A stretch of DNA of 64,000 nucleotides, from assembly GCF_003086295.3 (NCBI RefSeq), contig NC_092051.1, positions 68,077,772 to 68,141,771 on the forward strand. The letters are read 5' to 3'. Shown piece by piece: positions 4,983 to 56,647 of the stretch (the stretch's first letter is position 1; each line of letters starts with the position of its first letter). The notes beneath the pieces are model-generated. The model was given only the letters and a program-made list of their open reading frames with translations. It did no database searches and was not told the DNA's origin. The position numbers and the translations under genes are program-made. The DNA is from Arachis hypogaea. Taxonomy: Eukaryota; Streptophyta; Magnoliopsida; Fabales; Fabaceae.

Positions 4983-5018
4983 TTGCTTGGGGACAAGAAA
5001 GGTTTAAGTTTGGTGTTG
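4983..5018 (+). promoter_or_regulatory. Pre-LTR hairpin and polypurine-tract junction (element A)
   Basis: TTGCTTG-GGGA-CAAGAAA (4983-5000) forms a 7-bp stem with one mismatch. It is followed by GGTTTAAGTTTGGTGTTG, which ends exactly where the LTR begins (TGATGACA). Plus-strand priming normally occurs at this position. The same hairpin-word order is seen in C, F, G and M. Confidence 0.7.
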
Positions 5019-5390
5019 TGATGACAAGTCATCTTATGCTAGCTTTTCAAGCATTTTTCACTTGTTTCATTAGGTTTTATGCACTTTCTTGCATTGTAAG
5101 TAAGTAATTTGGAGTGGATTTGCATGGTTTTGTTGAATCAATCAACCATCCTTTATTTGACACCAAATCATGAGGTTTAAGCTAAAATTAGTTGGTTTTT
5201 GAATAATTTATGAACCTTGTGAATTTGGTGATGCTTTGTTTGGTTGTGTTGATTACTTGTAGGTGAAGAAATGGTTAAAAAAGGAAATTTTTGGCACGCT
5301 TTTGAAGATAAAGCATGCTTTGGACCTTAGGCCATGCTTTAGAAAGCGTGACCCAAGGAAACAAAAGCGTGGCGCACAAAGGAGGCAAGG

Positions 5391-6130
5391 GCGCTCAGTT
5401 AAATTACTTAACTGAGCGCTAGTAGATAATCAAAGCAGCATGACCAAAGGACCAAGGCTTAGGGCGTTAAGTAAAGAGAGTTAACTGAGCACCTAAAGAA
5501 GAAGGCAAAACTCATGGCGCTCAGTTAACTTTTCCCACCTTTTTCGTGCCCCCCATGAAAGAAATCAAAGCACATCAAGCAAAATGGGGGAGCCAAGGAT
5601 CGAACCTTGCACATGAGGTATGAGGGGCGCTACTCTTCACCAAAGGAAATTGCCAAAATGCAACCTCCAAGGCTCGAACCAAGCACCTGATGGAACCAAG
5701 GGGAGCGCTACTCCACTTTGCGAAGGAAATTGGCACCAAATTTGCACCCACCAGGATTCGAACAAGGAGCCTCAAGCCAAAAAGAAAAGCGCTACACCAA
5801 AGCAAAAGGGGTGCTCAGTTAAAACTTCTTCACTGAGTGCTACCTTGTGCCACAAAAATTGGCCGAATTGCTTCCACCAAGGCTCGAAGCTGGCCTCACT
5901 CAAACAGCAAGGGGCGCTAAGTTAACAAAGTTAACTTAATGCTATGAGGCACGCACAAGAAAGCTATGCAAGGCACACCCAAGGAAGCTTGTCACGCACC
6001 AAATTGAAGGGCAAAGGCATGTGTAGCGCTCAGTTAAAAAAGCCTAACTGAGCGGTCCCCTGGAGCCAAGCACCATGAGCAATTTTAACAAGACTTGAAG
6101 CGCTCAGTTAACTGAGTTAACTGAACGCTC
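5391..6130 (+). repeat. Array of GCGCTCAGTTAAC / GTTAACTGAGCGC words in the element A LTR
   Basis: The word GCGCTCAGTTAA and its reverse complement recur about every 100-150 bases, often as inverted pairs, for example 5391-5420 and 6100-6130. The array ends 110 bases upstream of the TATA box, in U3. Other LTR families here have a different self-complementary word in the same place. Confidence 0.75.
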
Positions 6131-6239
6131 CCCTGGAGGTGCACCATGGGTCCAATTATTATTCAATTGCCACTTTGGATTTAATTCTTCACCAAATGAG
6201 AAGCCCACTCCAAATTCTGAAGATAAAAAATAGAAAGTG

Positions 6240-6248
6240 TATAAATAG
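6240..6248 (+). promoter_or_regulatory. TATA box of element A LTR
   Basis: TATAAATAG in the LTR, downstream of the palindromic word array and about 1.03 kb before the LTR end. It is the likely core promoter of the element transcript. It is called from sequence only. Confidence 0.65.
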
Positions 6249-7275
6249 GACTTAGTTTGAGTGAGAGAGGAATTTTTTTGACCTTTTGGACCTTTTTGAC
6301 CTTTTGCTTTTTTTTTTTATTTTGAGCTTGGATTTGGGAATTGGGATTGAGAGCTGAGTTCTTTCCTCCTTGTTCTCACTTTTGCATTTCTTGCTTTCTG
6401 TTTTTGAATTGTGGATGGAGATTGAAGGAATTCTGTTTCAATCCTTGATCTACAATTCATCTTTGTTCTCTTTTGCATAATTCTAAGGAATTGTGAATTG
6501 GATTAAGCTTTCTGATTTCGTTTCCATTTCTTCTGCTACATTTGCTATCTACTCTTGGAATTTGAATTGAGATTGAAGAGCTTCATTGATTCTAATTTTG
6601 AGAATCATCTTTTACCTCTCTTCTCAAGTGTTCCAAGAAGTGGATCTGAATTTCCTTTGCTGTTTTAAATTTTCTTTTCTTCTGTAAATTGTTCTCTATT
6701 GGATCAAGGAAGGAATTGAGATCTAGACTTGTTTTCTAGTCTCATTGAGCCTCTGAGCTCTTGGATTTCTTTCCTAGCTCTTGAAATTAAGTTGAATCTA
6801 CTCTCTGTTTGGTTCTTCACTGCAATTTTCAAATTCTATTTAGATCTACTGCATTTATTTCATCTTCTTTGTTTTTTGTTGTTAAATTCTGAATCTCAGC
6901 ATCCCACACCCCTTTATTATTCAAGCAATTTACATTTCTTGCACTCTAAGCTTCAGCTATTTACATTTCTTGCAATTTAAGTTTTAGTCATTTATATTAC
7001 TTGCACTTTAAGATTCAGCTCTTTTACTTCTTCTGCTCTTTAATTTACTGTCAATTCTCCTTCTCCCTTTTAGTTTCATGCAATTTAGCTTCTGTTGGTT
7101 ACAAATCACTCAAATCATCAACTGTTTGCTTAACTAAATCAACCACCTAACTAAAATTTCTCAATCCTTCAATCCATGTGGGATCGACCTCACTCATGTG
7201 AGTAATTACTACTTGATGTGACTCGGTACACTTGCCAGTGAGTTTAGGTGTTGGAATTCCGTTTTCAACCCATCA

Positions 7276-7680: not shown

Positions 7681-7681
7681 T

Positions 7682-14199: not shown

Positions 14200-14217
14200 T
14201 TGCTTGAGGATAAGCAA
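14200..14217 (+). other. Internal copy of the pre-LTR hairpin (element C)
   Basis: TTGCTTG-AGGA-TAAGCAA, a 7-bp stem with one G-T pair and an RGGA loop, 450 bases before the 3' LTR. No purine tract follows it here, unlike the copy at 14625. Confidence 0.65.
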
Positions 14218-14624: not shown

Positions 14625-14661
14625 CTTGCTTGGGGACAAGTAAGATTTAAGTTTGGTGTTG
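14625..14661 (+). promoter_or_regulatory. Pre-LTR hairpin and polypurine-tract junction (element C)
   Basis: CTTGCTTG-GGGA-CAAGTAAG (8-bp stem, one G-T pair) followed by ATTTAAGTTTGGTGTTG, then the LTR. Confidence 0.7.
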
Positions 14662-17505: not shown

Positions 17506-17511
17506 AAAACT

Positions 17512-33365: not shown

Positions 33366-33403
33366 AGCATCGAGGACGATGCTTTATTTTAAGTGTGGGG
33401 AGG
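33366..33403 (+). other. Internal hairpin and purine tract, first copy (element F)
   Basis: AGCATCG-AGGA-CGATGCT (33366-33383, perfect 7-bp stem), then TTATTTTAAGTGTGGGGAGG. It is 5 bases after the ORF2 stop and 1.74 kb upstream of a second copy at the LTR junction. Confidence 0.75.
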
Positions 33404-35104: not shown

Positions 35105-35142
35105 TAGCATGAGGACATGCTATTGTTTAAGTGTGGGGAGGT
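35105..35142 (+). promoter_or_regulatory. Pre-LTR hairpin and polypurine tract, second copy (element F)
   Basis: TAGCATG-AGGA-CATGCTA (35105-35122) then TTGTTTAAGTGTGGGGAGGT, ending at the 3' LTR start. The stem sequence differs from the copy at 33366 but is also fully paired. Confidence 0.78.
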
Positions 35143-38044: not shown

Positions 38045-38081
38045 CAACACCAAACTTAAATTGTTGCTTGTCCCCAAGCAA
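38045..38081 (-). promoter_or_regulatory. Pre-LTR hairpin and purine-tract junction (element G, copy 1)
   Basis: On the minus strand TTGCTTG-GGGA-CAAGCAA (38081-38064), a perfect 7-bp stem, then CAATTTAAGTTTGGTGTTG abutting the LTR. Confidence 0.75.
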
Positions 38082-39081
38082 CTGAAAATCAAGTAGGATA
38101 AAAAGAAGAGAATATACTATAAATTCCAAACTATCAATGAAACATAGTTTCAATCATATGAGCGGGACTTATAGCTTTTTGCCTCTTGAATAGTTTTGGC
38201 ATCTCACTTTATCCATTGAGGTTCAGAATGATTGGCATCTATAGGAACTCAGAGTTCAGATAGTGTTATTGATTCTCCTAGTTCAGTATGATGATTCTTG
38301 AACACAGCTATTTTATGAGTCTTGGCCGTGGCCCTAAGCACTTTGTTTTCCAGTATTACTACCGGATACATAAATGCCACAGACACATAATTGGGTGAAC
38401 CTTTTCAGATTGTGACTCAGCTTTGCTAAAGTCCCCAATTAGAGGTGTCCAGGGTTCTTAAGCACACTCTTCTTTTGCTTTGGACCTTGACTTTAACCGC
38501 TCAGTCTCAAGTTTTCACTTGACACCTACACGCCACAAGCACATGGTTAGGGACAGCTTGGTTTAGCCGCTTAGACCAGGATTTTATTCCTTTAGGCCCT
38601 CCTATCCACTGATGCTCAAAGCCTTGGGATCCTTTTTATTTGCCCTTGCCTTTTGGTTTTAAGGGTTATTGGCTTTTTCTGCTTGCTTTTTCTTTTTCTT
38701 TTTTTTTTCTTTCTTTTTTTTTTTCGCCTATATTTTTTTTTCTGCAAGCTTTGTTTTTTTGCTGCTTTTTCTTGCTTCAAGAATCATTTTTATGATTTTT
38801 CAGATTATCAAATAACATGTCTCCTAGTCATCATTCTTTCAAGAGCCAACATATTTAACATTCTTAAACAACAACTTCAAAAGACATATGCACTGTTCAA
38901 GCATACATTCAGAAAACAAGAAGCATTGTCACCACATCAATATGATTAAACTAAGTTCAAGGATAAATTCGAAACTCATGTACTTCTTGTTCTTTTGAAT
39001 TAAAACATTTTTCATTTAAGAGAGGTGATGGATTCATAGGACATTTATAACTTTAAGACAGAGTTTACTAACTACTAATGA
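38082..39081 (-). other. Non-coding 3' region of element G (copy 1)
   Basis: No recognisable gene. A T-rich low-complexity run lies at about 38685-38770. The region is repeated almost exactly at 45355-46356. Confidence 0.7.
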
Positions 39082-39448: not shown

Positions 39449-39505
39449 CAATGGTTATGGAAAAATCAAAAAAGCTATGCTTTTTACCACACCAAACTTA
39501 GAAAG

Positions 39506-39523
39506 TTGCTCGCCCTCGAGCAA
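39506..39523 (-). other. Internal copy of the pre-LTR hairpin (element G, copy 1)
   Basis: On the minus strand TTGCTCG-AGGG-CGAGCAA, a perfect 7-bp stem, followed by CTTTCTAAGTTTGGTGTGG and then the second ORF. The same is at 46781-46798. Confidence 0.72.
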
Positions 39524-39847
39524 AAGAAGAAAGAATAGAAGAATAAGAAGAAGATATGGAGGAGATGGAGGGAGATGTGTATTCGGCCATATGGGTGGGA
39601 TTGGGTGGGAAAGAGATGTTGAATTTTGAAGGAAAGTGGGTGTTTGGATGTGAGTGGTAAAGAGTTAATAGGGAAGAGTGTTTATTGGGAATAGAGGATG
39701 ATTGAGAAGAGAGAAGAGAGTGAGTGGAGGTAGGTGGGGATCCTGTGGGGTCCACAGATCCTGAGTGATCCTGTGAGGTCCACAGATCTTGAGGTGTCAA
39801 GGCATTTACATCCCTGCACCAATTTAGGCATGCAAAATGCCTTGCAC

Positions 39848-40025
39848 ACAACTCTGGGCGTTCAGCGCCAGGTTGGTGCCCATTTTGGGCGTTCAACGCC
39901 CATTTGTGCCATTTCTGGCGTTGAACGCCAGAACCATGCTTGTTCTGGGCGTTCAGCGCCAGGAGCTCCCATTCTGGGCGTTCAGCGCCAGAACTATGCT
40001 CTGTTCTGGCGTTGAACGCCAGACA
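39848..40025 (-). repeat. GGCGTTCAACGCC palindrome array after gag-protease (element G, copy 1)
   Basis: Six copies of (T)GGGCGTTCA(A/G)CGCC(AG) or its complement at about 30-base spacing. The same word occurs three to four times in the LTR. The matching array of copy 2 is at 47130-47305. Confidence 0.8.
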
Positions 40026-40193
40026 GATGCTCCTCCAGATGTGATTTTTCTTCTGCTTTTTTGATTCCGTTTTGATTTTTTTGTTTATTTTGTGACTCCA
40101 CATGATATGAACCTAAGAAAACATAAAAAAAGAATTAGATAAACATGGGTTGCCTCCCAACAAGCACTTCTTTAATGTCAATAGCTTGACAGT

Positions 40194-41168
40194 GGGCTCT
40201 CATGGAGCCTCACAGATGTGCAGAGCTTTGTTGAAACTCTCCAACACTAAACTTAGAGTTTGGATATGGGAGTTCAACACCAAACTTAGAGTTTGGTTGT
40301 GGCCTCCCAACACCAAACTTAAGTTTGACTGTGGGGGCTTGGTTGACTCTGCTTGGAGAGAAGCTTTTCTGCTTCCTCCCATGGTTGCAGAGGGAGATCC
40401 TTGAGTTTTAATACAAGGGAGTCTCATTCCATTGAAGGACTATTTCACCTCTGTCAACATCAATCACAGCTCTTGATGTGGCCAGGAAAGGTCTTCCTAG
40501 GATGATGGATTCATCCTCTTCCTTTCCATATCCAGGACTATGAAATCAGTAGGTATGTAAAGGCCTCAACCTTTACTATACATCTCTACTTGTCCATAAG
40601 CCTTTTTCTTGAGTGTCTGCCATCTCTATGAGATTTTAGCACTTGCACCCCATAGATTCCCAGTTTCTCTATTACAGAGAGGGGCATGAGGTTTATCCCT
40701 GAACCAAGGTCACACAGAGCCTTAAAGATCATGGTGCCTATGTACAAGGATTATGAACTTTCCAGGATCCTGTCTCTTCTGAGGCAATGTAGTTGATCCA
40801 TATCACTTAGTTCATTGATGAACAAGGGAGGTTCAACTTCCCAAGTATCAATGCCAAATAATTTGGCATTTAGCTTCATGATTGCACCAAGAAACTTGGC
40901 AGTTTGCTCTTCAGTAACATCCTCATTCTCTTCAGAAGAGGATACTCATCCGAGCTTATGAAGGGCATAAGGAGGTTCAATGGAATCTCTATGGTCTCTA
41001 GATGAGCCTCAGATTCCTTTGGTTCCTCAGAGGGAAGCTCCTTATTGTCACTGGACGTCCCAGGAGATCTTCCTCCTTGGGATTCACGTCCTCCTTCCCT
41101 CAGGTTCGGCCATTGCTTATGTCAATGGCCTTGCACTCTCCTTTTGAGTTCTCTTCTGTATTGCTTGG
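40194..41168 (-). pseudogene. Element G gag-protease remnant cut by the N gap (copy 1)
   Basis: It matches 47480-48480 but with many single-base losses (for example near 40320, 40370, 40410, 40540, 40740 and 40940). These break the frame repeatedly and become denser toward the gap. The pattern looks like uncorrected long-read sequence rather than natural decay. The protease loop and the FLATSRAVIDV motif can still be matched to copy 2. Confidence 0.75.
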
Positions 41169-42168
41169 NNNNNNNNNNNNNNNNNNNNNNNNNNNNNNNN
41201 NNNNNNNNNNNNNNNNNNNNNNNNNNNNNNNNNNNNNNNNNNNNNNNNNNNNNNNNNNNNNNNNNNNNNNNNNNNNNNNNNNNNNNNNNNNNNNNNNNNN
41301 NNNNNNNNNNNNNNNNNNNNNNNNNNNNNNNNNNNNNNNNNNNNNNNNNNNNNNNNNNNNNNNNNNNNNNNNNNNNNNNNNNNNNNNNNNNNNNNNNNNN
41401 NNNNNNNNNNNNNNNNNNNNNNNNNNNNNNNNNNNNNNNNNNNNNNNNNNNNNNNNNNNNNNNNNNNNNNNNNNNNNNNNNNNNNNNNNNNNNNNNNNNN
41501 NNNNNNNNNNNNNNNNNNNNNNNNNNNNNNNNNNNNNNNNNNNNNNNNNNNNNNNNNNNNNNNNNNNNNNNNNNNNNNNNNNNNNNNNNNNNNNNNNNNN
41601 NNNNNNNNNNNNNNNNNNNNNNNNNNNNNNNNNNNNNNNNNNNNNNNNNNNNNNNNNNNNNNNNNNNNNNNNNNNNNNNNNNNNNNNNNNNNNNNNNNNN
41701 NNNNNNNNNNNNNNNNNNNNNNNNNNNNNNNNNNNNNNNNNNNNNNNNNNNNNNNNNNNNNNNNNNNNNNNNNNNNNNNNNNNNNNNNNNNNNNNNNNNN
41801 NNNNNNNNNNNNNNNNNNNNNNNNNNNNNNNNNNNNNNNNNNNNNNNNNNNNNNNNNNNNNNNNNNNNNNNNNNNNNNNNNNNNNNNNNNNNNNNNNNNN
41901 NNNNNNNNNNNNNNNNNNNNNNNNNNNNNNNNNNNNNNNNNNNNNNNNNNNNNNNNNNNNNNNNNNNNNNNNNNNNNNNNNNNNNNNNNNNNNNNNNNNN
42001 NNNNNNNNNNNNNNNNNNNNNNNNNNNNNNNNNNNNNNNNNNNNNNNNNNNNNNNNNNNNNNNNNNNNNNNNNNNNNNNNNNNNNNNNNNNNNNNNNNNN
42101 NNNNNNNNNNNNNNNNNNNNNNNNNNNNNNNNNNNNNNNNNNNNNNNNNNNNNNNNNNNNNNNNNNNN
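41169..42168. other. Assembly gap, 1000 N
   Basis: Exactly 1000 N. By alignment to copy 2 (48481-50332) about 1.85 kb is missing here: the gag N-terminal half and part of the leader. Open frames spanning the N run are meaningless. Confidence 0.98.
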
Positions 42169-43557
42169 AAAAGATAAGATAGAAGATATTTTTGAAAAGA
42201 TATGATTGAGATTAGTTTTTTGGAAAACGATTTGATTTTTAAATCTCAATAATGACTTGATTCATAAAAAATCACAAGATATGATTCTAGAACTTAAAGT
42301 TTGAATCTTTCTTAACAAGCAAGTAACAAACTTCAAATTTTTGAATCAAAACATTAATTGATTAGTTGTTTTCGAAAATTTGATTTAAAAATAAGAAAAA
42401 GATTTTGAAAAATATTTTTGGAATTTTCGAAATAACTAAGAATTTTGAAAAAGATTTGATTTTTGAAAAAGATTTTGAAAAAGATAAGATTTTCAAATTG
42501 AAAATTTGATTTGACTCATGAGAAACAATTTGATTTTAAAAATTTTTGAAAAAGTCAATCCAAATTTTCGAATTTGATGAGAGAAAAAGGGAAAGATATT
42601 TTTTTTTTGATTTTTTGAATTTTTATGATGAGAGAGAAAAACACTAAAAAGATGCAATGCATGAAATTTTTAGATCAAAACATGTGATGCATGCAAGAAT
42701 GCTATGAATGTCAAGATGAACACCAAGAACACTATGAATGTCATGATGAACATCAAGAACATATTTTGAAAAATTTTAATGCAAAGAAAACATGCAAGAC
42801 ACCAAACTTAGAATTCTTAATGCTTACGCACTAAGAATCAGAATGCATATGATAAACATGAAAAGACACAAAACAAAAAATCATCAAGATCAAACAAGAA
42901 GACTTACCAAGAACAACTTGAAGATCATGAAGAACACTATGAATGCATGATATTTTCGAAAAATGCAAGATGCATATGCAAGTGACACCAAACTTATAAT
43001 GTGACTCAAGACTCAAACAAGAAACAGAAAAATATTTTTGATTTTTATGATTTTCTAATTTTTTTTGTATTTTTTTCGAAAATTATATGAAAAAGAAAAA
43101 ATAAGGATTCCAAAATTTTTAACATGAATTCCAGGAATCTTGCATTCTTAGTCTAAAGCTTCAGTCCAGGAATTAGACATGGCTCACTAGCCACCAAGCT
43201 TTCAATGAAAGCTCCGCCAAAACACTAGACATGGCCAATGGCCAGCCAGCTTCAGCATAATTCAGACATGACACGCCTGACATACCCTACAGTCGTGTAA
43301 GAGCTGATGGTTGGAAGCCTCAGTCCAAAAGAATTTAGACATGGCTTTACAGCCAGCCAGGCTTCACATGCTTCATGAAACACTAGAATTCATTCTTAAA
43401 GATTTTGAATAAAATTTTTGAAAACGTTTTTATTTATTTTTTTCGAAAATAGATGATAGATTTTTGAAAACATTTTGACAATTTTGAAAATAAAATAAAA
43501 GGAAAATTACCTAATCTGAGCAACAAGATGAGCCGTTAGTTGTCCAAACTCGAACAA

Positions 43558-43575
43558 TCCCCGGCAACGGCGCCA
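43558..43575 (-). promoter_or_regulatory. Primer binding site, tRNA-Asp type (element G, copy 1)
   Basis: Minus-strand TGGCGCCGTTGCCGGGGA, a perfect tRNA-Asp complement; 6 bases from the middle LTR. Confidence 0.92.
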
Positions 43576-43581
43576 AAAACT

Positions 43582-45317
43582 TGTGCACGAAATTGTGATG
43601 TCCAGGCTCAAACAATCCCTGGTAATGGCTCCAAAGCTTGGTGCTTTGAGCTTAATTCATAATTGTCACAACTTCGATACAACTAACCAGCAAGTGCACT
43701 GGGTCGTCCAAGTAATACCTTATGTGAGTAAGGATCGAATCCCACGGAGATTGTTGGTATGAAGCAAGCTATGGTCACCTTGCAAATCTCAGTCAGGCGG
43801 ATTTAAACATGATATTTTATTAGATTAAAATAAACAATAAAAGGGATAGAGATACTTATGTAATTCATTGGTAGGAATTTCAGATAAGCGAATGGAGATG
43901 CTTTTCGTTCCTCTGAACCTCTGTTTTCCTGCTATCTTCATCCAATCAGTCTTACTCCTTTCCATGGCTGGCTTTATGTGATACATCACCACTGTCAACG
44001 GCTACTTTCGGTCATCTCACGGGAAAATGATCCAATGCCCTGTCACGGCACGGCTAATCGTCTGGAGGCATCACCCTTGCCAATGGCTTCATCTTATCCT
44101 CTCAGTGAATAATATGCTCACGCACCCTGTCACGGCACGGCTATTCATCTATCGGTTCTCGATCATGCTGGAATAGGATTTACTATCCTTTTGCGTCTGT
44201 CACTAACGCCCTGCAATCGCGAGTTAGGAGCTCGTCACAGTCATTCAATCATTGAATCCTACTCGGAATACCACAGACAAGGTTTAGACCTTCCGGATTC
44301 TCTTGAATGCCGCCATCATTCTAGCTTACGCCACGAAGATTCTGGTTAGGAGATCTAAGAGATACTCATTCTAGCTTAATTCATGTAGAACAGAAGTGTT
44401 TGTCAGGCACGCGTTCATAAGGGAGAAGGATGATGAGCGTCACACATAATCATCACCTTCATCACGTTCTTGGGTGCGAATGGATATCTTAGAAGAGAAA
44501 TAAGAAGAATTGAATAGAAAACAGTAGTACTTTGCATTAATCTTTGAGGAACAGCAGAGCTCCACACCTTAATCTATGGAGTGTAGAAACTCTACCGTTG
44601 AAAATACATAAGTGAAGGTCCAGGCATGGCCGAGATGGCCAGCCCCCTTTTACGTGATCAATAGATCAAAGGCTGATCAAAAGATGCCTAATACAATAGT
44701 AATAGGTCCTATTTATAATAAACTAGCTACTAGGGTTTACATGAGTAAGTATTTGATGTATAAATCCACTTCCGGGGCCCACTTGGTGTGTGTTTGGGCT
44801 GAGCTTAAGTGTAGCACGTGCAGAGGCCATTTGTGGAGTTGAACGCCAAGTTCTGTGCCAGTTTGGGCGTTCAACTCTGGTTTTGGATCCTTTTCTGGCG
44901 CTGGACGCCAGATTTGGGCAGAAGGCTGGCGTTGAACGCCAGTTTACGTCGTCAATGCTTGGCCAAAGTATGGACTATTATATATTGCTGGAAAGCCCTG
45001 GATGTCTACTTTCCAACGCAATTAGATGCGCGCCATTTCGAGTTCTGAAGCTCCAGAAAATCCACTTTGAGTACAGGGAGGTCAGAATCCAACAGCATCA
45101 GCAGTCCTTTTTCAACCTCTGAATCTGATTTCTGCTCAAGTCCCTCAATTTCAGCCAGAAAATACCTGAAATCACAGAAAAACACACAAACTCATAGTAA
45201 AGTCCAGAAATGTGAATTTAACATAAAAACTAAGGAAAACATCCCTAAAAGTAACTAGATCCTACTAAAAACATACTAAAAACAATGCCAAAAAGCGTAT
45301 GAATTATCTGCTCATCA
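43582..45317 (-). repeat. LTR copy 2 of element G (middle)
   Basis: 1736 bp, one G shorter at its minus-strand end (TGTGCACG rather than TGGTGCACG on the plus strand). It differs from copies 1 and 3 at only a handful of sites. Confidence 0.92.
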
Positions 45318-45354
45318 CAACACCAAACTTAAATTGTTGCTTGTCCCCAAGCAA
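45318..45354 (-). promoter_or_regulatory. Pre-LTR hairpin and purine-tract junction (element G, copy 2)
   Basis: Identical in design to 38045-38081: TTGCTTG-GGGA-CAAGCAA (45354-45337, minus) and the AAGTTTGGTGTTG word. Confidence 0.75.
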
Positions 45355-46356
45355 CTGAAAATCAAGTAGGATAAAAAGAAGAGAATATACTATAAATTCC
45401 AAACTATCAATGAAACATAGTTTCAATCATATGAGCGGGACTTATAGCTTTTTGCCTCTTGAATAGTTTTGGCATCTCACTTTATCCATTGAGGTTCAGA
45501 ATGATTGGCATCTATAGGAACTCAGAGTTCAGATAGTGTTATTGATTCTCCTAGTTCAGTATGATGATTCTTGAACACAGCTATTTTATGAGTCTTGGCC
45601 GTGGCCCTAAGCACTTTGTTTTCCAGTATTACTACCGGATACATAAATGCCACAGACACATAATTGGGTGAACCTTTTCAGATTGTGACTCAGCTTTGCT
45701 AAAGTCCCCAATTAGAGGTGTCCAGGGTTCTTAAGCACACTCTTCTTTTGCTTTGGACCTTGACTTTAACCGCTCAGTCTCAAGTTTTCACTTGACACCT
45801 ACACGCCACAAGCACATGGTTAGGGACAGCTTGGTTTAGCCGCTTAGACCAGGATTTTATTCCTTTAGGCCCTCCTATCCACTGATGCTCAAAGCCTTGG
45901 GATCCTTTTTATTTGCCCTTGCCTTTTGGTTTTAAGGGTTATTGGCTTTTTCTGCTTGCTTTTTCTTTTTCTTTTTTTTTTCTTTCTTTTTTTTTTTCGC
46001 CTATATTTTTTTTTTCTGCAAGCTTTGTTTTTTTTGCTGCTTTTTCTTGCTTCAAGAATCATTTTTATGATTTTTCAGATTATCAAATAACATGTCTCCT
46101 AGTCATCATTCTTTCAAGAGCCAACATATTTAACATTCTTAAACAACAACTTCAAAAGACATATGCACTGTTCAAGCATACATTCAGAAAACAAGAAGCA
46201 TTGTCACCACATCAATATGATTAAACTAAGTTCAAGGATAAATTCGAAACTCATGTACTTCTTGTTCTTTTGAATTAAAACATTTTTCATTTAAGAGAGG
46301 TGATGGATTCATAGGACATTTATAACTTTAAGACAGAGTTTACTAACTACTAATGA

Positions 46357-46723
46357 TCATGTAATGAAGACACAAACATAGATAAGCACATAACATAGAA
46401 AATGAAAAACAGAGAAAGTAAGAACAAGGAATGAGTCCACCTTAGTGATGTCCTTGAGCTCTTCTATGTCTCTTCCTTGTCTTTTCTGCTCCTCCTTCAT
46501 TGCTTTTAGATCTTCTCTGATTTCATGAAGGATGATGGAGTGCTCTTGATATTCCACCCTTAGTTGCTTCCAATAATTGTGTGGAATAAAATGTATCCCC
46601 TGAGGTATCTCAGGGATCTCTTGATTTGCAGTCAAATGTTCTACCACTGAGCTATAGACCTTTGATGGAAGCTTTTGTCTTCCCTTTCCTCTTTCTAGAG
46701 GCTTCTCTGGCCTTTGGTGCCAT
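46357..46723 (-). pseudogene. Small second ORF of element G (copy 2)
   Basis: Copy of 39082-39448 with the same stop and one-base shift, so the break is older than the duplication or both copies derive from one sequence. It includes the same tRNA-Cys-like segment at 46661-46598. Confidence 0.55.
46598..46661 (-). other. tRNA-Cys(GCA)-like segment inside element G (copy 2)
   Basis: Same bases as the segment at 39323-39386, with anticodon GCA at 46629-46627. Confidence 0.72.
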
Positions 46724-47419
46724 CAATGGTTATGGAAAAAACAAAAAAGCTATGTTTTTTACCACACCAAACTTAGAAAGTTGCTCGCCCTCGAGCAAAA
46801 GAAGAAAGAATAGAAGAATAAGAAGAAGATATGGAGGAGATGGAGGGAGATGTGTATTCGGCCATATGGGTGGGATTGGGTGGGAAAGAGATGTTGAATT
46901 TTGAAGGAAAGTGGGTGTTTGGATGTGAGTGGTAAAGAGTTAATAGGGAAGAGTGTTTATTGGGAATAGAGGATGATTGAGAAGAGAGAAGAGAGTGAGT
47001 GGAGGTAGGTGGGGATCCTGTGGGGTCCACAGATCCTGAGGTGATCCTGTGAGGTCCACAGATCTTGAGGTGTCAAGGCATTTACATCCCTGCACCAATT
47101 TAGGCATGCAAAATGCCCTTGCACACAACTCTGGGCGTTCAGCGCCAGGTTGGTGCCCATTTTGGGCGTTCAACGCCCATTTGCTGCCATTTCTGGCGTT
47201 GAACGCCAGAACCATGCTTGTTCTGGGCGTTCAGCGCCAGGATGCTCCCATTCTGGGCGTTCAGCGCCAGAACTATGCTCTGTTCTGGCGTTTGAACGCC
47301 AGACAGATGCTCCTCCAAGATGTGATTTTTCTTCTGCTGTTTTTGATTCCGTTTTTGATTTTTTTGTTTATTTTGTGACTCCACATGATTATGAACCTAA
47401 GAAAACATGAAAAACAAGA

Positions 47420-47477
47420 ATTAGATAAACATGGGGTTGCCTCCCAACAAGCGCTTCTTTAATGTCAATAGCTTGAC
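47420..47477 (-). other. Post-ORF double hairpin (element G, copy 2)
   Basis: On the minus strand GTCAA-GCTA-TTGAC (47477-47464), then ATTAAAGAAGCGCTT, then GTTGGGAGGCAACCCC, in which the second stem is weakened to 3-4 pairs. The copy at 40177-40190 / 40146-40162 has the same first hairpin and a 4-bp second stem. Confidence 0.7.
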
Positions 47478-47496
47478 AGTGGGCTCTCATGGAGCC

Positions 47497-49824
47497 TCAC
47501 AGATGTGCAGAGCTTTGTTGAAACTCTCCAACACTAAACTTAGAGTTTGGATATGGGAGTTCAACACCAAACTTAGAGTTTGGTTGTGGCCTCCCAACAC
47601 CAAACTTAGAGTTTGACTGTGGGGGCTCTGGTTGACTCTGCTTGGAGAGAAGCTTTTCCTGCTTCCTCCCCATGGTTGCAGAGGGAGATCCTTGAGTTTT
47701 GAATACAAGGGAGTTCTCATTCCATTGAAGGACTATTTCACCTCTGTCAACATCAATCACAGCTCTTGATGTGGCCAGGAAAGGTCTTCCTAGGATGATG
47801 GATTCATCCTCTTCCTTTCCAATATCCAGGACTATGAAATCAGTAGGTATGTAAAGGCCCTCAACCTTTACTAATACATCTTCTACTTGTCCATAAGCCT
47901 ATTTTCTTGAGCTGTCTGCCATCTCTAGTGAGATTTTAGCAGCTTGCAGCCCATAGATTCCCAGTTTCTCTATTACAGAGAGGGGCATGAGGTTTATCCC
48001 TGAACCAAGGTCACACAGAGCCTTAAAGATCATGGTGCCTATGGTACAAGGGATTATGAACTTTCCAGGATCCTGTCTCTTCTGAGGCAATGTTAGTTGA
48101 TCCAGATCACTTAGTTCATTGATGAACAAGGGAGGTTCAACTTCCCAAGTATCAATGCCAAACAATTTGGCATTCAGCTTCATGATTGCACCAAGAAACT
48201 TGGCAGTTTGCTCTTCAGTAACATCCTCATTCTCTTCGGAAGAGGAGTACTCATCAGAGCTCATGAAGGGCATAAGGAGGTTCAATGGAATCTCTATGGT
48301 CTCTAGATGAGCCTCAGAGTCCTTTGGTTCCCCAGAGGGAAGCTCCTTATTGATCACTGGACGTCCCTGGAGGTCTTCCTCCTTGGGATTGACGTCCTCT
48401 CCTTCCCTTACAGGTTCGGCCATGGCACTTATGTCAATGGCCTTGCACTCTCCTTTTGGGTTCTCTTCTGTATTGCTTGGGAGAGTACTAGGAGGGATTT
48501 CAGTGATCCTTTTACTCAGCTGGCCCACTTGTGCTTCCAAATTTCTAATGGAAGACCTTGTTTCATTCATGAAACTTACAGTGGCCTTAGATAGATTAGA
48601 GACTAGATTTGCTAAATTAGAAGTATTTTGTTCAGAGTTCTCTGTCTGTTGCTGAGTTGATGATGGAAAAGGTTTGCTATTGCTAAACCTGTTTCTTCCA
48701 CCATTATTAAAGCCTTGTTGAGGCTTTTGATCCTTCCATGAGAAATTTGGATGATTTCTCCATGTTGAGTTATAGGTGTTTCCATAAGGTTCACCTAAGT
48801 AATTTACCTCTGCTATTGCAGGGTTCTCAGGATCATAGGCTTCTTCTTCAGAAGATGCCTCTTGAGTACTGTTGGATGCAGCTTGCATTCCATGCAGACT
48901 CTAAGAGATCATATTGACTTGCTGAGTCAATATTTTATTCTGAGCCAATATGGCATTCAGAGTATCAACTTCAAGAACTCCCTTCTTCATAGGCGTCCCA
49001 TTACTCACAGGATTCCTTTCAGAAGTGTACATGAACTGGTTATTAGCAACCATGTCAATGAGTTCTTGAGCTTCTGCAGGCGTTTTCTTTAGGTGAATGG
49101 ATCCACCTGCAGAGGTGTCCAGTGACATCTTTGATAGCTCAGATAAACCATCATAGAATATATCCAGGATGGTCCATTCTGAAAGCATGTCAGAAGGACA
49201 CTTTTTGGTCAACTGTTTGTATCTTTCCCAAGCTTCATAGAGAGATTCACCTTCTTTCTGTCTGAAGGTTTGAACATCAGCTCTAAGCTTGCTCAGCTTT
49301 TGAGGAGGAAAATACTTGGCTAAGAAAGCCGTGACCAGCTTATCCCAAGAGTTCAGGCTGTCTTTGGGTTGAGAATCCAACCATAATCTAGCTCTGTCTC
49401 TTACAGCAAAAGGGAAAAGCATAAGCCTGTAGACTTCAGGATCTACTCCATTAGTCTTAACAGTATCACATATCTGCAAGAATTCAGTTAAGAACTGAAA
49501 AGGATCTTCAGATGGAAGTCCATGAAACTTGCAGTTCTGCTGCATCAGAGAAACTAATTGAGGTTTCAGCTCAAAGTTGTTTGCTCCAATGGCAGGAATA
49601 GAGATGCTTCTTCCATGTAAATTGGAATTAGGTGCAGTAAAGTCACCAAGCATCTTCCTTATATTATTATTATTTTCGGCTGCCATCTCCTCTTCCTATT
49701 CAAAAATTTCTGAAAGGTTTTCTCTGGATTGTTGTATTTTAGCTTCTCTTAATTTTCTCTTCAGAGTCCTTTCAGGTTCTGGATCTGCTTCCACAAGAAT
49801 GTTCTTATCCTTGCTCCTGCTCAT
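47497..49824 (-). pseudogene. Element G gag-protease polyprotein (copy 2)
   Basis: The minus-strand ATG at 49824 begins SRSKDKNILVEADPEPER and one frame runs to about 47497 with only three stops: near 49696 (TAG), 48901 (TAG) and 47899 (TAG). Gag has the core LMLFPFAVRDRARLWLDS and GESLYEAWERYKQLTKKCP, then Gln/Asn/Ser-rich sequence with a heptad-like helix (NLVSNLSKATVSFMNE). There is no CCHC knuckle. The retropepsin-like part has CDLGSGINLMP, where the usual G-A-S is G-S-G, and SIILGRPFLATSRAVIDV. The C-terminus contains three NSKFGV-type repeats read from copies of the AAGTTTGGTGTTG word. No polymerase follows; about 780 codons in all. Confidence 0.88.
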
Positions 49825-51738
49825 ATGATAAGGAAGAATGGACAGGAAAATGATAATAATAATAGAGATCCTTTATACCACAGTATAGGGATCCCTTTGT
49901 GAGTGGAAGAAAAGAGGGGGAGACAAAGCACGTGATGTAAAAGAAGAAATGCAACTGTGCGAATGGAAGAGATGTGAGATGAGATGTTAGGATATGAATG
50001 AATAAATAGAATGAGATGGGGGAGGAATAATTTTCGAAAATTATTTTGAAAAAGGGTTAGTGATTTTTGAAAATTGGTTTTTGAAAATTGTTAGTATTTT
50101 TTTTTCGAAATTTTTTTTTAAAATAAAAATAAAAATAAAAATAATTAGTAAATAAAAAAGAAATTTTTGAAAAAAGGGGGAGGTATTTTCGAAAATTAGA
50201 AAGGGAGAATTAGTTAGGTGGTTTTGAAAAAGTTAAGAAACAAACAAAAAGTTAGTTAGTTAGTTGAAACAAATTTTTGAAAAGATAAGAAGTTAGGAAG
50301 TTAGAAAAGATATTTTGAAAAGATATTTTTGAAAAAGATAAGATAAGAAGATATTTTGAAAAGATATGATTGAGATTAGTTTTTGAAAACGATTTGATTT
50401 TTAAAATCTCAATTAATGACTTGATTCATAAAAAATCACAAGATATGATTCTAGAACTTAAAGTTTGAATCTTTCTTAACAAGCAAGTAACAAACTTCAA
50501 ATTTTTGAATCAAAACATTAATTGATTAGTTGTTTTCGAAAATTTGATTTAAAAATAAGAAAAAGATTTTTGAAAAATATTTTTGGAATTTTCGAAAATA
50601 ACTAAGAATTTTGAAAAAGATTTGATTTTTGAAAAAGATTTTGAAAAAGATAAGATTTTCAAATTGAAAATTTGATTTGACTCATGAGAAACAATTTGAT
50701 TTTAAAAATTTTTGAAAAAGTCAATCCAAATTTTCGAATTTGATGAGAGAAAAAGGGAAAGATATTTTTTTTTTGATTTTTTGAATTTTTATGATGAGAG
50801 AGAAAAACACTAAAAAGATGCAATGCATGAAATTTTTAGATCAAAACATGTGATGCATGCAAGAATGCTATGAATGTCAAGATGAACACCAAGAACACTA
50901 TGAATGTCATGATGAACATCAAGAACATATTTTTGAAAAATTTTTAATGCAAAGAAAACATGCAAGACACCAAACTTAGAATTCTTTAATGCTTACGCAC
51001 TAAGAATTCAAGAATGCATATGATAAACATGAAAAGACACAAAACAAAAAATCATCAAGATCAAACAAGAAGACTTACCAAGAACAACTTGAAGATCATG
51101 AAGAACACTATGAATGCATGATATTTTCGAAAAAATGCAAGATGCATATGCAAGTGACACCAAACTTATAATGTGACTCAAGACTCAAACAAGAAACAGA
51201 AAAATATTTTTGATTTTTATGATTTTCTAATTTTTTTTGTATTTTTTTCGAAAATTATATGAAAAAGAAAAAATAAGGATTCCAAAATTTTTAACATGAA
51301 TTCCAGGAATCTTGCATTCTTAGTCTAAAGCTTCAGTCCAGGAATTAGACATGGCTCACTAGCCAGCCAAGCTTTCAATGAAAGCTCCGGTCCAAAACAC
51401 TAGACATGGCCAATGGCCAGCCAAGCTTCAGCATTTAATTCAGACATGACACGCCTGACATACCCTACAGTCGTGTAAGAGCTGATGGTTGGAAGCCTCA
51501 GTCCAAAAGAATTTAGACATGGCTTTACAGCCAGCCAGGCTTCACATGCTTCATGAAACACTAGAATTCATTCTTAAAGATTTTGAATAAAATTTTTGAA
51601 AACGTTTTTATTTATTTTTTTCGAAAATAGATGATAGATTTTTGAAAACATTTTTGACAAATTTTTGAAAATAAAATAAAAGGAAAATTACCTAATCTGA
51701 GCAACAAGATGAGCCGTTAGTTGTCCAAACTCGAACAA
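49825..51738 (-). other. Leader between primer site and gag (element G, copy 2)
   Basis: 1.9 kb without ORFs. It is dominated by TTTTTGAAAA and TTTTCGAAAA words (about 50030-50770 and 51180-51670) and holds ACACCAAACTTA words at about 50970 and 51155. The leader of copy 1 is 42169-43557. Confidence 0.75.
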
Positions 51739-51756
51739 TCCCCGGCAACGGCGCCA
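51739..51756 (-). promoter_or_regulatory. Primer binding site, tRNA-Asp type (element G, copy 2)
   Basis: Minus-strand TGGCGCCGTTGCCGGGGA, perfect match, 6 bases from the LTR. Confidence 0.92.
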
Positions 51757-51762
51757 AAAACT

Positions 51763-53499
51763 TGGTGCACGAAATTGTGATGTCCAGGCTCAAACAATCC
51801 CTGGTAATGGCTCCAAAGCTTGGTGCTTTGAGCTTAATTCATAATTGTCACAACTTCGATACAACTAACCAGCAAGTGCACTGGGTCGTCCAAGTAATAC
51901 CTTATGTGAGTAAGGATCGAATCCCACGGAGATTGTTGGTATGAAGCAAGCTATGGTCACCTTGCAAATCTCAGTCAGGCGGATTTAAACATGATATTTT
52001 ATTAGATTAAAATAAACAATAAAAGGGATAGAGATACTTATGTAATTCATTGGTAGGAATTTCAGATAAGCGAATGGAGATGCTTTTCGTTCCTCTGAAC
52101 CTCTGTTTTCCTGCTATCTTCATCCAATCAGTCTTACTCCTTTCCATGGCTGGCTTTATGTGATACATCACCACTGTCAACGGCTACTTTCGGTCATCTC
52201 ACGGGAAAATGATCCAATGCCCTGTCACGGCACGGCTAATCGTCTGGAGGCATCACCCTTGCCAATGGCTTCATCTTATCCTCTCAGTGAATAATATGCT
52301 CACGCACCCTGTCACGGCACGGCTATTCATCTATCGGTTCTCGATCATGCTGGAATAGGATTTACTATCCTTTTGCGTCTGTCACTAACGCCCTGCAATC
52401 GCGAGTTAGGAGCTCGTCACAGTCATTCAATCATTGAATCCTACTCGGAATACCACAGACAAGGTTTAGACCTTCCGGATTCTCTTGAATGCCGCCATCA
52501 TTCTAGCTTATGCCACGAAGATTCTGGTTAGGAGATCTAAGAGATACTCATTCTAGCTTAATTCATGTAGAACAGAAGTGTTTGTCAGGCACGCGTTCAT
52601 AAGGGAGAAGGATGATGAGCGTCACACATAATCATCACCTTCATCACGTTCTTGGGTGCGAATGGATATCTTAGAAGAGAAATAAGAAGAATTGAATAGA
52701 AAACAGTAGTACTTTGCATTAATCTTTGAGGAACAGCAGAGCTCCACACCTTAATCTATGGAGTGTAGAAACTCTACCGTTGAAAATACATAAGTGAAGG
52801 TCCAGGCATGGCCGAGATGGCCAGCCCCCTTTTACGTGATCAATAGATCAAAGGCTGATCAAAAGATGCCTAATACAATAGTAATAGGTCCTATTTATAA
52901 TAAACTAGCTACTAGGGTTTACATGAGTAAGTATTTGATGTATAAATCCACTTCCGGGGCCCACTTGGTGTGTGTTTGGGCTGAGCTTAAGTGTAGCATG
53001 TGCAGAGGCCATTTGTGGAGTTGAACGCCAAGTTCTGTGCCAGTTTGGGCGTTCAACTCTGGTTTTGGATCCTTTTCTAGCGCTGGACGCCAGATTTGGG
53101 CAGAAGGCTGGCGTTGAACGCCAGTTTACGTCGTCAATTATTGGCCAAAGTATGGACTATTATATATTGCTGGAAAGCCCTGGATGTCTACTTTCCAACG
53201 CAATTGGAAGCTCGCCATTTCGAGTTCTGTAGCTCCAGAAAATCCACTTTGAGTGCAGGGAGGTCAGAATCCAACAGCATCAGCAGTCCTTTTTCAACCT
53301 CTGAATCTGATTTCTGCTCAAGTCCCTCAATTTCAGCCAGAAAATACCTGAAATCACAGAAAAACACACAAACTCATAGTAAAGTCCAGAAATGTGAATT
53401 TAACATAAAAACTAAGGAAAACATCCCTAAAAGTAACTAGATCCTACTAAAAACATACTAAAAACAATGCCAAAAAGCGTATAAATTATCTGCTCATCA
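51763..53499 (-). repeat. LTR copy 3 of element G (5' end of the array)
   Basis: 1737 bp; on the plus strand TGGTGCACGAAATTG to CTGCTCATCA. Followed directly by the right GATAA duplication. Confidence 0.92.
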
Positions 53500-53504: not shown

Positions 53505-53826
53505 CTAGGACAGGACTTTCAAATTTTAATACCTTGCCAAGAGTTTATTTTACAGTTATTTATTTATTTTAATTGTCATTTAAATTATTTGTTCCTTACT
53601 TTCAAAACCCCCATTTACAAAACTTATAGCAATAATAAGAACACCTCCCTGCAGTTCCTTGAGAAGATGACCCGAGGTTTAAATACTTCGTTTATCAATT
53701 TTAAAGGGGTTTGTTACTTGTGACAACCAAAACGTTTGTAAGAAAAGTCGATTGCTCAGTTTTTAGAAACTATACTTGCAACGGGAATTTATTCTGAATT
53801 CTAAACCGTCAATCTTCCGTTCTTCA
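53505..53826 (+). repeat. 3' LTR of element F, right part
   Basis: Continues the F LTR after the G insertion to GTTCTTCA at 53826; the final 250 bases match 27770-28012 closely. Confidence 0.9.
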
Positions 53827-54420: not shown

Positions 54421-54460
54421 ATTCACTGAGCCCCTATCAACCTTCATAAAGGAGCTGTCC

Positions 54461-54507
54461 GTCAAGTTAATGACGGTAAAAAAGCGCTTGTTGGGAGGCA
54501 ATCCAAC
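54461..54507 (+). other. Post-ORF double hairpin (element I)
   Basis: GTCA-AGTTAA-TGAC (54461-54474) and GTTGGG-AGGCAA-TCCAAC (54490-54507), the latter with a G-T pair. The remaining 150 bases to 54660 are T-rich with nothing recognised. Confidence 0.78.
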
Positions 54508-54660
54508 CATATGTACAATATATCCTAATTTTTTTTCTTTTATATCATTTTTATTTTGATTTCATATCATTTTATTTTCTATCATTTTTCATAGTTTTCC
54601 TCTTCTTTTTAATGTTTGTGATCATGTGTAGCACTTAGAACAGAAATAGGAATAGAGGAC

Positions 54661-56611
54661 TGATATCCTAAAAACTGTCTCTCAACAATTTTCTATCAGC
54701 AAGTGCACCGGATTGTTGTCAAGTAAAAACTCATTGTAGAGTGAGGTCGAATCCCACAAGGATTGGTTGGTTGATCAATGTTAATTGGAGAATTGTTCTA
54801 GTTGAACTAAATCCGATTTGAAATTAGGATCGCAGAATGTAAATTAGCGGGAAACTTAAATTGCAAGAAATTAAATGGGAATGGGGAGATTGAGCATTAA
54901 ATTAAAGACAGAATTTAAAAGAATGGGTAGATCAGAGATGGAAAAGCTCATTGGGGTTAGGAGATGCTATAATTCTCCGGATCAAACTCATTTTCATCTC
55001 TTCCTCAATCAATGTATTCATTGATCTCTTTGGCAATCTTAGGTGATTGGATCCCAATTCCTTGGTAATCCAATCTCTCTAAGCATGAACAATTGCCTAA
55101 TTCCTTGATTTAAGTGCTCATAGGAAGAGATGAGGTGTGGTCACTGATTATACCACACATATTCATAGATCAAAGTGTTGGTAGGATTACATTTCACGAT
55201 ATCCATCCAAACCCCAGTCTAATCTAATGTGAGAAAGCATTTTTAGCATGATCTCCTCATTCCTCTTCTATATTCAGAGGAGATCCAATTATGGATAGCT
55301 TCTTTCCCAAGACAACTATCCACTGGGATGAAGAACGAAAGCTTTCTAGCAAGATCAAGAGAAAAGAAAGAAGAAGAAAAATGAAAATTAATATTGATCC
55401 ATTTAATTACACAGAGCTCCCTAACCCAATGAAGGGGGTTTAGTTGTTCATAGCTCAATACAAATCAAAAAGAAAAGAAATTGCAGAAAAGTAAGAAAGT
55501 ACAAAAGGAAAATGTTGCAAAAAAAGAAAGTACATAAACTAAAAGGAAAAATTGCAGATGAAATGAAATCAGAGTCTGAACCTCTAGAGCCCCTTCAGGG
55601 CCTCCCAGAGAGATGCCTTCAATCTTCAGCAATCCTTCTATTTATACTCTTCTTCTCATCTTCAATTGGATCAAGTACTTGGATGTGGGCCTTTTAGAAG
55701 TGATTCTTTGATGATAGGCATTGGCAACTAACTGCAAACTCTGCATAGGTGCAATCTCGAATGGAAAAAGCCTCAACGTTGGTGATCACGTTTGTACAAA
55801 AACGTTGGGTCAAACATTGCTTTAGAAAAATGAATTCTGGGCTTTGATAGCAATGTTTGACTCAACGTTGGAGCACCAACGTTCGCGCGTCCACCCATGC
55901 ACCTGGCCCACGCGTACGCGTGGATGGTCAAAATTGTCATTCTACGTTTACACGTCAAACAAGTTTTTGCGCGTATGCGTCGTTCAGGCATTCGCGTGCA
56001 AGGCCAAAATTTGTATCCACGCGTATGCGTCATAGAACCGTACGCGTCACCTCAAATTTTCCCACTTCCAGTTTTGGGAGTCTCATCGCGTACGTTGGCC
56101 TCAGCATTGGACCACAAACGCTCCCTCCAACATTGGCCTTTCCATGCGTGCGCGTCACCCATGCGTATTCGTGGATTTTCAAAATTCCACAATCGACGCG
56201 TGGGCGACACGCGTCGCACCAAATTTTTCCAATTTCCAGAAAGCACATTGTATTGAAATAGGTTGGAGGTAACATTGGACTACCAATGTTCCCTCCAACG
56301 TTGGCACCAGAAACTTGCAGAAAGTTGCATTGCCCTCTTTCGTTGCTCCTCCTCTGCTTCTTTCCTCCTATCATCAACCAAACAAATACATCAAAGCTTT
56401 GCTAATTTCATAATAATTTGCATCATTCATAATCAACAAGTAAACATATCATAATTCTTATGAAAATGAATCAAAATAACAATGTTTGATTGAATTAAGG
56501 CATGCATGAAATTCCCATCTAAATACCTACTTATTGCCTAAGAAATGCATGAAACTACCCTAAAACAAGCTAAAAATGGCTTGTGAAACTAGCCAAGATG
56601 CCCTGGCATCA
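54661..56611 (-). repeat. 3' LTR of element M
   Basis: 1951 bp; minus-strand TGATGCCAGGGCATC to GGATATCA. Minus-strand TATAAATAG at 55636-55628. Words of CAACGTT type (GTTGG, CCAACGTT) and CG-rich ACGCGT words are mixed upstream of the TATA box (55770-56310). Confidence 0.78.
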
Positions 56612-56647
56612 CAACACCAAACTTAAATCTTGCTTGTCCTCAAGCAA
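56612..56647 (-). promoter_or_regulatory. Pre-LTR hairpin and purine-tract junction (element M)
   Basis: Minus-strand TTGCTTG-AGGA-CAAGCAA (56647-56630), perfect stem, then GATTTAAGTTTGGTGTTG abutting the LTR. Confidence 0.75.

What the first reader, a model, noticed from the sequence alone, without database searches (positions are those of the whole stretch)
4983..56647. A 7-bp hairpin with an RGGA or AGGG loop precedes the purine tract in five families, with covarying stems
Just upstream of the 3' LTR, elements A, C, F, G and M all have stem-(R)GGA-stem followed within about 10 bases by TTTAAG. Stems are TTGCTTG/CAAGCAA (G at 38064 and 45337; M at 56630), CTTGCTTG/CAAGTAAG (C, 14625), TAGCATG/CATGCTA (F, 35105) and TTGCTTG/CAAGAAA (A, 4983, one mismatch). 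Internal copies add AGCATCG/CGATGCT (F, 33366), TTGCTCG/CGAGCAA with loop AGGG (G, 39506 and 46781) and TTGCTTG/TAAGCAA (C, 14200). At least four stems differ in sequence yet stay fully paired, while the loop stays constant. That is the mark of a selected RNA structure. Its place suggests a role in plus-strand priming, 3' end formation or packaging; the role is inference.
Basis: partly seen in the sequence, partly recalled or inferred. Interest (0 to 1): 0.88.

Follow-up and report, generated by a model that had tools for sequence, protein, structure and literature searches.

The report
Covarying hairpin before retrotransposon plus-strand primers
A plant genome carries tens of thousands of retrotransposon copies with a small hairpin a fixed distance before the place where second-strand DNA synthesis starts; its letters change but its pairing does not, so it is probably a working part of how these elements copy themselves.

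Summary
In the window, 62 of 63 base-pair cells of nine distinct hairpin copies pair, and 6 of 7 pairs show double changes. In an independent 200-kb stretch of the same genome, 25 of 35 TTTAAGTKTGG sites carry a purine loop at the expected place; eighteen distinct copies there show 36 double-change cells against 11.5 in shuffles. One form alone has 45,204 genome matches, reversed control 0. Five 5'-type LTR flanks lack it, and so does a Tat/Retand-like family. The loop ends 25-27 nt, usually 26, before the LTR in both tract types, so the stem base lies about 16-20 nt from the PPT/U3 junction. HIV-1 RT cuts RNA 18 bp behind its polymerase site (passages, PMC3185654). My best explanation: reverse transcriptase pauses at the hairpin and RNase H then cuts the plus-strand primer at PPT/U3. 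That function is inferred, not shown. Internal hairpin-PPT cassettes with other stems may be second plus-strand start sites.

The parts
4982..5001 (+). Element A hairpin CTTGCTTG-GGGA-CAAGAAAG, 7 of 8 pairs
5003..5018 (+). Element A purine-rich tract TTTAAGTTTGGTGTTG; 3' LTR starts at 5019
14625..14644 (+). Element C hairpin CTTGCTTG-GGGA-CAAGTAAG, one G-U pair
14646..14661 (+). Element C purine-rich tract; 3' LTR starts at 14662, boundary fixed by GGAGG target-site duplication
14200..14217 (+). Element C internal hairpin TTGCTTG-AGGA-TAAGCAA (closing G-U), no purine tract after it
35105..35122 (+). Element F hairpin TAGCATG-AGGA-CATGCTA
35126..35142 (+). Element F purine-rich tract TTTAAGTGTGGGGAGGT; 3' LTR starts at 35143
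33366..33383 (+). Element F internal hairpin AGCATCG-AGGA-CGATGCT followed by TTTAAGTGTGGGGAGGTCG (no LTR)
38063..38082 (-). Element G copy 1 hairpin GTTGCTTG-GGGA-CAAGCAAC; 3' LTR starts at 38044
45336..45355 (-). Element G copy 2 hairpin GTTGCTTG-GGGA-CAAGCAAC; LTR starts at 45317
39506..39523 (-). Element G copy 1 internal hairpin TTGCTCG-AGGG-CGAGCAA followed by CTTTCTAAGTTTGGTGTGG
46781..46798 (-). Element G copy 2 internal hairpin, same as copy 1
56630..56647 (-). Element M hairpin TTGCTTG-AGGA-CAAGCAA; 3' LTR starts at 56611
63175..63194 (+).
63197..63212 (+). Element N purine-rich tract TTTTAGGAGGGTAGAA; 3' LTR starts at 63213
62767..62784 (+). Element N tRNA-Met-type primer binding site; 62767-63212 (446 nt) lies between it and the 3' LTR
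58882..62763 (+). Element N 5' LTR, about 3.9 kb (TGTAACAACC ... GTCGTTACA); right end inferred from the primer site, since the 3' LTR runs out of the window

Best explanation
It is a cis-acting hairpin of the retrotransposon genomic RNA that belongs to the plus-strand primer. During minus-strand synthesis reverse transcriptase copies U3, then the purine-rich tract (PPT), then meets the base of the hairpin and pauses. [quoted passage not shown] Shown here: the hairpin, its covariation, its near-constant loop, its coupling to the PPT, the spacing, and its presence before two unlike tract types, one of them in an element with a tRNA-Met primer site. Inferred: the pause, the cut, and the RNA rather than cDNA strand. 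Internal hairpin-PPT cassettes would be second (central-type) plus-strand start sites by the same means (inferred).
For: Covariation: 62 of 63 cells paired and 6 of 7 pairs with double changes in 9 window copies; 132 of 144 cells, 36 double-change cells against 11.5 shuffled, 7 of 8 pairs, in 18 distinct copies from 200 kb found by PPT and loop letters only. Outermost pair genome-wide: with 5' C, 5 of the about 100 listed rows end in C and the rest in G; with 5' G, 1 of about 100 ends in G and the rest in C; both counted by eye. Coupling: of 22 RGGR-loop hairpins in 200 kb, 19 are followed by a PPT; of 286 other 4-nt-loop hairpins, 3, two of which are cassettes with AGAA and GAAA loops. Prediction met: for another PPT type the pattern (its GAGGAC start partly recalled, partly taken from N) set no condition on the 5' arm, and 12 of 12 loci read carry the complementary arm AATTTTC. 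Spacing: 41 distinct LTR junctions, 40 with at least 6 pairs; loop end to U3 26 nt in 31, 27 in 6, 25 in 3. In one search, where 13 spacer lengths were allowed, 57 of 58 matches have one length. Element N keeps a primer site, hairpin and PPT in 446 nt whose three sense frames have no stop-free run over 58 codons. PMC3185654 (passages): RNase H cut 18 bp behind the polymerase site, RNase H about seven times slower than synthesis, pausing already suspected of allowing the PPT-U3 cut.
Against: No reverse-transcription or RNA-probing data were available. The polymerase to RNase H distance of these plant enzymes is unknown to me; I take it from HIV-1. Stem base to U3 spans 16-20 nt depending on which outer pairs are counted. 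Several junctions in the spacing count (L023-L030, L051-L054) were fetched with patterns that fix the spacing, so only the window, the 200-kb stretch and searches are free evidence. A Tat/Retand-like family in the same genome has no such hairpin above chance (best stem mean 3.10 against 3.12 shuffled, 51 distinct strings), so the device is not general for Ty3/gypsy. The stems alone are not very stable (-2.0 to -8.5 kcal/mol), and 60-nt folding energies are ordinary for A, M and N. PPT-like copies without a hairpin are frequent (10 of 35 sites).
Confidence: 0.45

Rival explanations
1. A Gag (nucleocapsid) binding hairpin used for packaging or for bringing Gag to the 3' end. The conserved G-rich loop is what zinc knuckles bind in retroviral packaging hairpins (recalled).
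For: Two loop G and the closing G are the only invariant letters in the window while stems vary. A zinc knuckle is encoded in one locus that carries the hairpin, L059 (1 of 3 stretches scanned). Internal plus terminal cassettes: ten same-strand pairs in 200 kb.
Against: Does not explain why the terminal cassettes sit 25-27 nt before U3 or why internal copies bring the PPT with them. Loops AGAA and GAAA occur with intact stems in some copies, though these may be decayed.
Confidence: 0.2
2. The hairpin acts in the minus-strand cDNA (loop TCCY), next to the annealed PPT primer, for example by marking the primer 5' end or stopping plus strands arriving from upstream.
For: Covariation and strand asymmetry fit single-stranded cDNA as well as RNA. 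Among listed copies of the TGCACCG family both wobble kinds (G-U and A-C) occur, so wobble does not decide.
Against: G-U pairs in C, in internal C and in some 200-kb copies pair in RNA but would be A-C in cDNA; however, a common CTTGCTT-AGGGAC-AAGCAAG form has A-C in RNA.
Confidence: 0.13
3. Transcript 3'-end formation, stability or export signal.
For: Lies in the 3' part of the transcript, just before the 3' LTR.
Against: Poly(A) sites of LTR elements lie in the LTR (recalled); internal cassettes 1.4-2.1 kb upstream would be misplaced; spacing to U3 has no obvious meaning for it.
Confidence: 0.07
4. No function: a relic of common ancestry, or a palindromic protein site in DNA.
For: Copies within a family are related, so copy number alone proves nothing.
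Against: Letters of the arms differ at most pairs between families while pairing stays; a protein site would keep its letters. Internal G copies are read by database proteins in three frames, so coding does not keep them either.
Confidence: 0.04

Closest known systems
Polypurine tract plus-strand primer of Ty3/gypsy and retroviral elements
   Same: Purine-rich tract ending at the 3' LTR, the start site of plus-strand DNA (PMC5371799 passages).
   Different: Six papers on such elements or on PPT priming have no occurrence of the word hairpin in the main text (word searches). The G-type tract here (TTTAAGTTTGGTGTTG) is only partly purine.
RT pausing proposed to help the PPT-U3 cut in HIV-1 (PMC3185654 passages)
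   Same: Pause gives RNase H time to cut at the PPT/U3 junction.
   Different: There the pause is ascribed to the stiffness of the tract itself; here a covarying hairpin stands where the polymerase would be.
Central polypurine tracts (retroviruses and Ty1; PMC5371799 passage, says none is known for Ty3)
   Same: A second internal copy of the plus-strand primer sequence.
   Different: Here the internal copy brings its own hairpin with another stem sequence; no plus-strand gap or flap was tested.
Retroviral packaging hairpins with G-rich tetraloops (recalled)
   Same: Short stem, G-rich 4-nt loop.
   Different: Located at the 3' end next to the PPT, not in the 5' leader.

Membership tests
Athila/Tat-type plant Ty3/gypsy LTR retrotransposons (elements A, C, F, G, M) | Paired LTRs with target-site duplication | tested here: met
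   C: GGAGG on both sides; G: TTATC around an LTR-internal-LTR-internal-LTR array. A, F and M not shown with duplication; M's 5' LTR is not in the window.
Athila/Tat-type plant Ty3/gypsy LTR retrotransposons (elements A, C, F, G, M) | tRNA-Asp-type primer binding site after the 5' LTR | tested here: met
   Sites at 274 (A), 11833 (C), 28016 (F), 43575 and 51756 (G), 0-1 mismatch; M not testable in the window. That the motif is tRNA-Asp is recalled; PMC1142308 (passage) gives tRNA-Asp for Calypso/Diaspora.
Athila/Tat-type plant Ty3/gypsy LTR retrotransposons (elements A, C, F, G, M) | Gag and pol domains in Ty3/gypsy order | tested here: inconclusive
   Retrotrans_gag in A and G; no RT or integrase among the 25 window stretches scanned with Pfam at E 0.001.
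Athila/Tat-type plant Ty3/gypsy LTR retrotransposons (elements A, C, F, G, M) | Lineage placement by RT phylogeny | not tested
   No RT found to place; the lineage names rest on primer site and recalled LTR starts.
Chromovirus (element N) | tRNA-Met primer site, absent from non-chromoviruses | tested here: met
   TGGTATCAGAGC at 62767; PMC6317226 passage gives tRNA-Met for most chromoviruses and the copia lineages with complete tRNA primers, not for non-chromoviruses. No primer site was found in L051-L066, which resemble N in tract only.
Chromovirus (element N) | Chromodomain or integrase type | not testable with these tools
   N's internal region is about 446 nt and its sense frames are short; copia is not excluded.
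Central polypurine tract | Second PPT copy inside the element | tested here: met
   F 33388, G internal; 13 internal cassettes against 16 terminal in 200 kb. A has no internal hairpin and C's lacks the tract.
Central polypurine tract | Plus-strand start, gap or flap at that site | not testable with these tools
   Needs cDNA mapping.
Described RNA families | Match to an Rfam model at the gathering score | tested here: not met
   The only match in the window is snoR71, elsewhere.

The most novel reading that the evidence does not exclude
Many plant Ty3/gypsy-type retrotransposons, with two unlike tract types and probably two primer-tRNA classes, set the plus-strand start with an RNA ruler: a covarying RGGR hairpin whose base stops reverse transcriptase one polymerase-to-RNase H length from the PPT/U3 junction. 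This can replace a true polypurine tract, and it is repeated inside the element with a different stem as a second start site.
Probability: 0.35. Interest if true: 0.85.

Novelty: new variant of a known kind. Interest (0 to 1): 0.74.

Why it matters
How reverse transcriptase picks the one correct plus-strand primer is an old open question. A covarying structure at a near-constant distance from the cut site, in tens of thousands of copies and in elements whose tract is not really polypurine, makes a pause-and-cut model directly testable with short synthetic RNAs. It also gives a marker of 3' LTR junctions and strand that does not depend on the stem's letters. I found no description in print in ten searches of the open-licence library (listings seen, nine papers looked into by passages); subscription papers are mostly not held, so it may be known.

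Tried and rejected
Outer helix in which the PPT pairs with the pyrimidine-rich stretch upstream: seen in the folds of F, G and internal F, but not better than with shuffled upstream sequence (51-408 of 500 shuffles as good, nine sites). Rejected.

Coding explanation for internal G copies: nine database homologues of the ORF that ends in the hairpin. By my reading of the alignment, P0001, P0002 and P0006 cross it as ARGRATF-stop, P0003 and P0009 as LEGEQHSKFGVV, P0005 and P0007 as SRAS..NILSLVW, that is three frames; P0004 and P0008 do not reach it. Coding rejected as the cause.

Relatives outside this genome: three IMG/VR pattern scans gave 13 loci sharing one unrelated, coding-looking stretch, nothing, and four GC-rich contigs without the hairpin's tract; a gag search gave none; one GTDB scan gave five matches in bacterial or archaeal records, reading as unrelated. 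So no second plant was examined.

Tat/Retand-like PPT AGCAGGGGCA: 2715 + 2657 matches, reversed control 207 + 244. From the 100 or so listed rows I kept 51 distinct strings whose context looked like the element's and dropped the rest before the count; no hairpin above chance (7 of 51 with 5 or more pairs, shuffled 4.0).

G-U against A-C preference to separate RNA from cDNA: both occur, undecided. Loop GGGGA complementary to the tRNA-Asp 3' end (recalled): fits only GGGA loops, not AGGA or the tRNA-Met element; dropped without a test.
Full report
What is there. The window lies at C16:68077772-68141771 of a 2,557,474,382-base assembly with 440 contigs; the size fits cultivated peanut (recalled, not tested). 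It is a nest of LTR retrotransposons. LTR pairs were found by self-comparison, and boundaries were fixed by target-site duplications for C (GGAGG) and for the tandem G array (TTATC).

The hairpin. All ten reported sites exist. Nine distinct copies, with N included and one copy of each duplicated G site, align without gaps. 62 of 63 cells pair, six of seven pairs have double changes, and none or one of 500 shuffles reaches these values; sliding the partner column by one to three drops pairing to 29-54%. The only invariant letters are the closing G and two loop G. RGGR loops with seven or more pairs occur nine times in the window where simulation gives 0.17. Five LTR starts that are not 3' junctions have none.

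Independent test in the same genome. I took 200 kb of contig C2 chosen without regard to the motif. I examined 16 LTR-like pairs out of the 30 alignments: nine show the hairpin on an inner, PPT-side flank, two of them with loop AGAA and one with a U-G pair; one shows it on an outer flank, where that LTR is itself the 3' LTR of another listed pair; six show none (one cut by the edge of the stretch, four without a clear LTR start, one Tat-like with only a 6-bp stem and a 7-nt loop). One further 6-bp stem lies on an outer flank. Of 35 exact TTTAAGTKTGG sites, 20 have a perfect stem of 6 or more with a 4-nt loop in the 32 nt before (letter-shuffled mean 0.2, maximum 2). 25 have a purine loop ending 9-11 nt before TTTAAG and 10 lack it. 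The 18 distinct 20-mers, selected by PPT and loop letters but not by pairing, give 91.7% paired cells, 36 double-change cells (shuffled 11.5) and 7 of 8 pairs with double changes; the number of changed pairs and of pair types alone is not unusual (64 and 123 of 500 shuffles). RGGR loops are followed by a PPT in 19 of 22 hairpins, other loops in 3 of 286.

Whole-genome counts. One form: 22,722 + 22,482 matches, reversed control 0. A pattern that excludes the common stem centre: 9,291 + 9,301, control 30 + 20; the first 100 rows reveal new stems such as TGCACCG/CGGTGCA. All 100 can form a stem (loop of 4 or 6, G-U counted, at most one mismatch): 44 of the 45 distinct strings over six or more positions, one over four. 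The outermost pair swaps G-C for C-G between families with few mixed copies (rows counted by eye). These searches list only the first rows, mostly of contig C1, so listed rows are not a random sample.

A second tract type. N-type: 467 + 441, control 0, loops mostly AGGG and AGGA. From N, and from a motif partly recalled, I predicted a hairpin before related tracts with other arms: the pattern GAGGACB...AGGRGGGTAGAATGTAA found 27 + 31, control 0, and the 5' arm, left free, was complementary in 12 of 12 loci, before four different sequences following TGTAA (LTR pairs and primer sites were not found or checked for these). N has about 446 nt between primer site and 3' LTR, with hairpin and PPT at its end and no long sense frame.

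Internal cassettes. In the 200 kb, 16 cassettes stand before an LTR start and 13 do not; in ten cases an internal one lies about 1.4-2.1 kb upstream of a terminal one on the same strand (my pairing of the rows). Their stems differ (TTTGCTCG, TGCACCG, TAGCACGG against GTTGCTTG, TTAGCATG) but loop and tract agree. In the window F and G follow this; A has no internal hairpin; C's has no tract.

Spacing. Over 41 distinct junctions found by PPT and LTR start, 40 have at least six pairs; loop end to U3 is 26 nt in 31, 27 in 6, 25 in 3; the stem base lies 16-20 nt from U3. One row (C) is registered at 27 by the script where the 25-nt register is the obvious one. Junctions in L023-L030 and L051-L054 were fetched by spacing-fixed patterns and are not independent; the window, the 200-kb stretch and the free-gap search (57 of 58 matches of equal length) are.

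How it probably works. The cut that makes the primer must fall at PPT/U3. RNase H of HIV-1 RT cuts 18 bp behind the polymerase site, is about seven times slower than synthesis, and pausing has been suggested to allow the PPT-U3 cut (PMC3185654, passages). A hairpin whose base is about that far from U3 would be a pausing device. That step is inference; so is the RNA strand. The G-type tract is only partly purine, which would make such help useful (inference). Packaging, cDNA and 3'-end rivals are weighed in their sections.

Limits. No second plant was examined; no RT was found to place the elements; the Tat/Retand-like type lacks the hairpin; no biochemical data. In print: passages of nine papers (for PMC11963269 also abstract and outline) and ten searches gave no description; most subscription papers are not held.

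Noticed in passing
window, + 3557, 3606, 3801, 13536, 13615, 13917; minus strand 40277, 47564, 50967 and others: The 12-mer TAAGTTTGGTGT occurs 21 times in the window: five at 3' LTR junctions, two at the internal G hairpins; the rest have no such hairpin, and two pairs are 33 nt apart. Their role is unknown.
   Followed up: partly
window 36311-53499, minus strand: Element G is a tandem LTR-internal-LTR-internal-LTR array with one target-site duplication TTATC around the whole; by the alignments it appears to be inserted in the 3' LTR of F.
   Followed up: partly
window 58882-63212: Element N has an LTR of about 3.9 kb (inferred) and about 446 nt between primer site and 3' LTR, a non-autonomous design with almost only cis-acting sites; it begins within a gag-like frame (58595-58945, Retrotrans_gag).
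   Followed up: yes
G000 contig C1 rows: A common form CTTGCTT-AGGGAC-AAGCAAG has lost the closing G-C pair (A-C), giving a 6-nt loop with the 7-bp stem kept.
   Followed up: no
window 61946-61963: The only RGGR hairpin with 7 or more pairs in the window that is not next to a purine tract or LTR (AAGAACT-GGGG-AGTTCTT on the minus strand).
   Followed up: no
window 49183-49290: Rfam snoR71 match just at its threshold (40.6 against 40 bits), antisense inside the gag frame of G; possibly chance.
   Followed up: no
L034 5742 and 6242: A Tat/Retand-like element has two tract copies 500 nt apart, the terminal one with CGATCT/AGATCG and a 7-nt loop; its kind shows no hairpin above chance over 51 strings.
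   Followed up: partly
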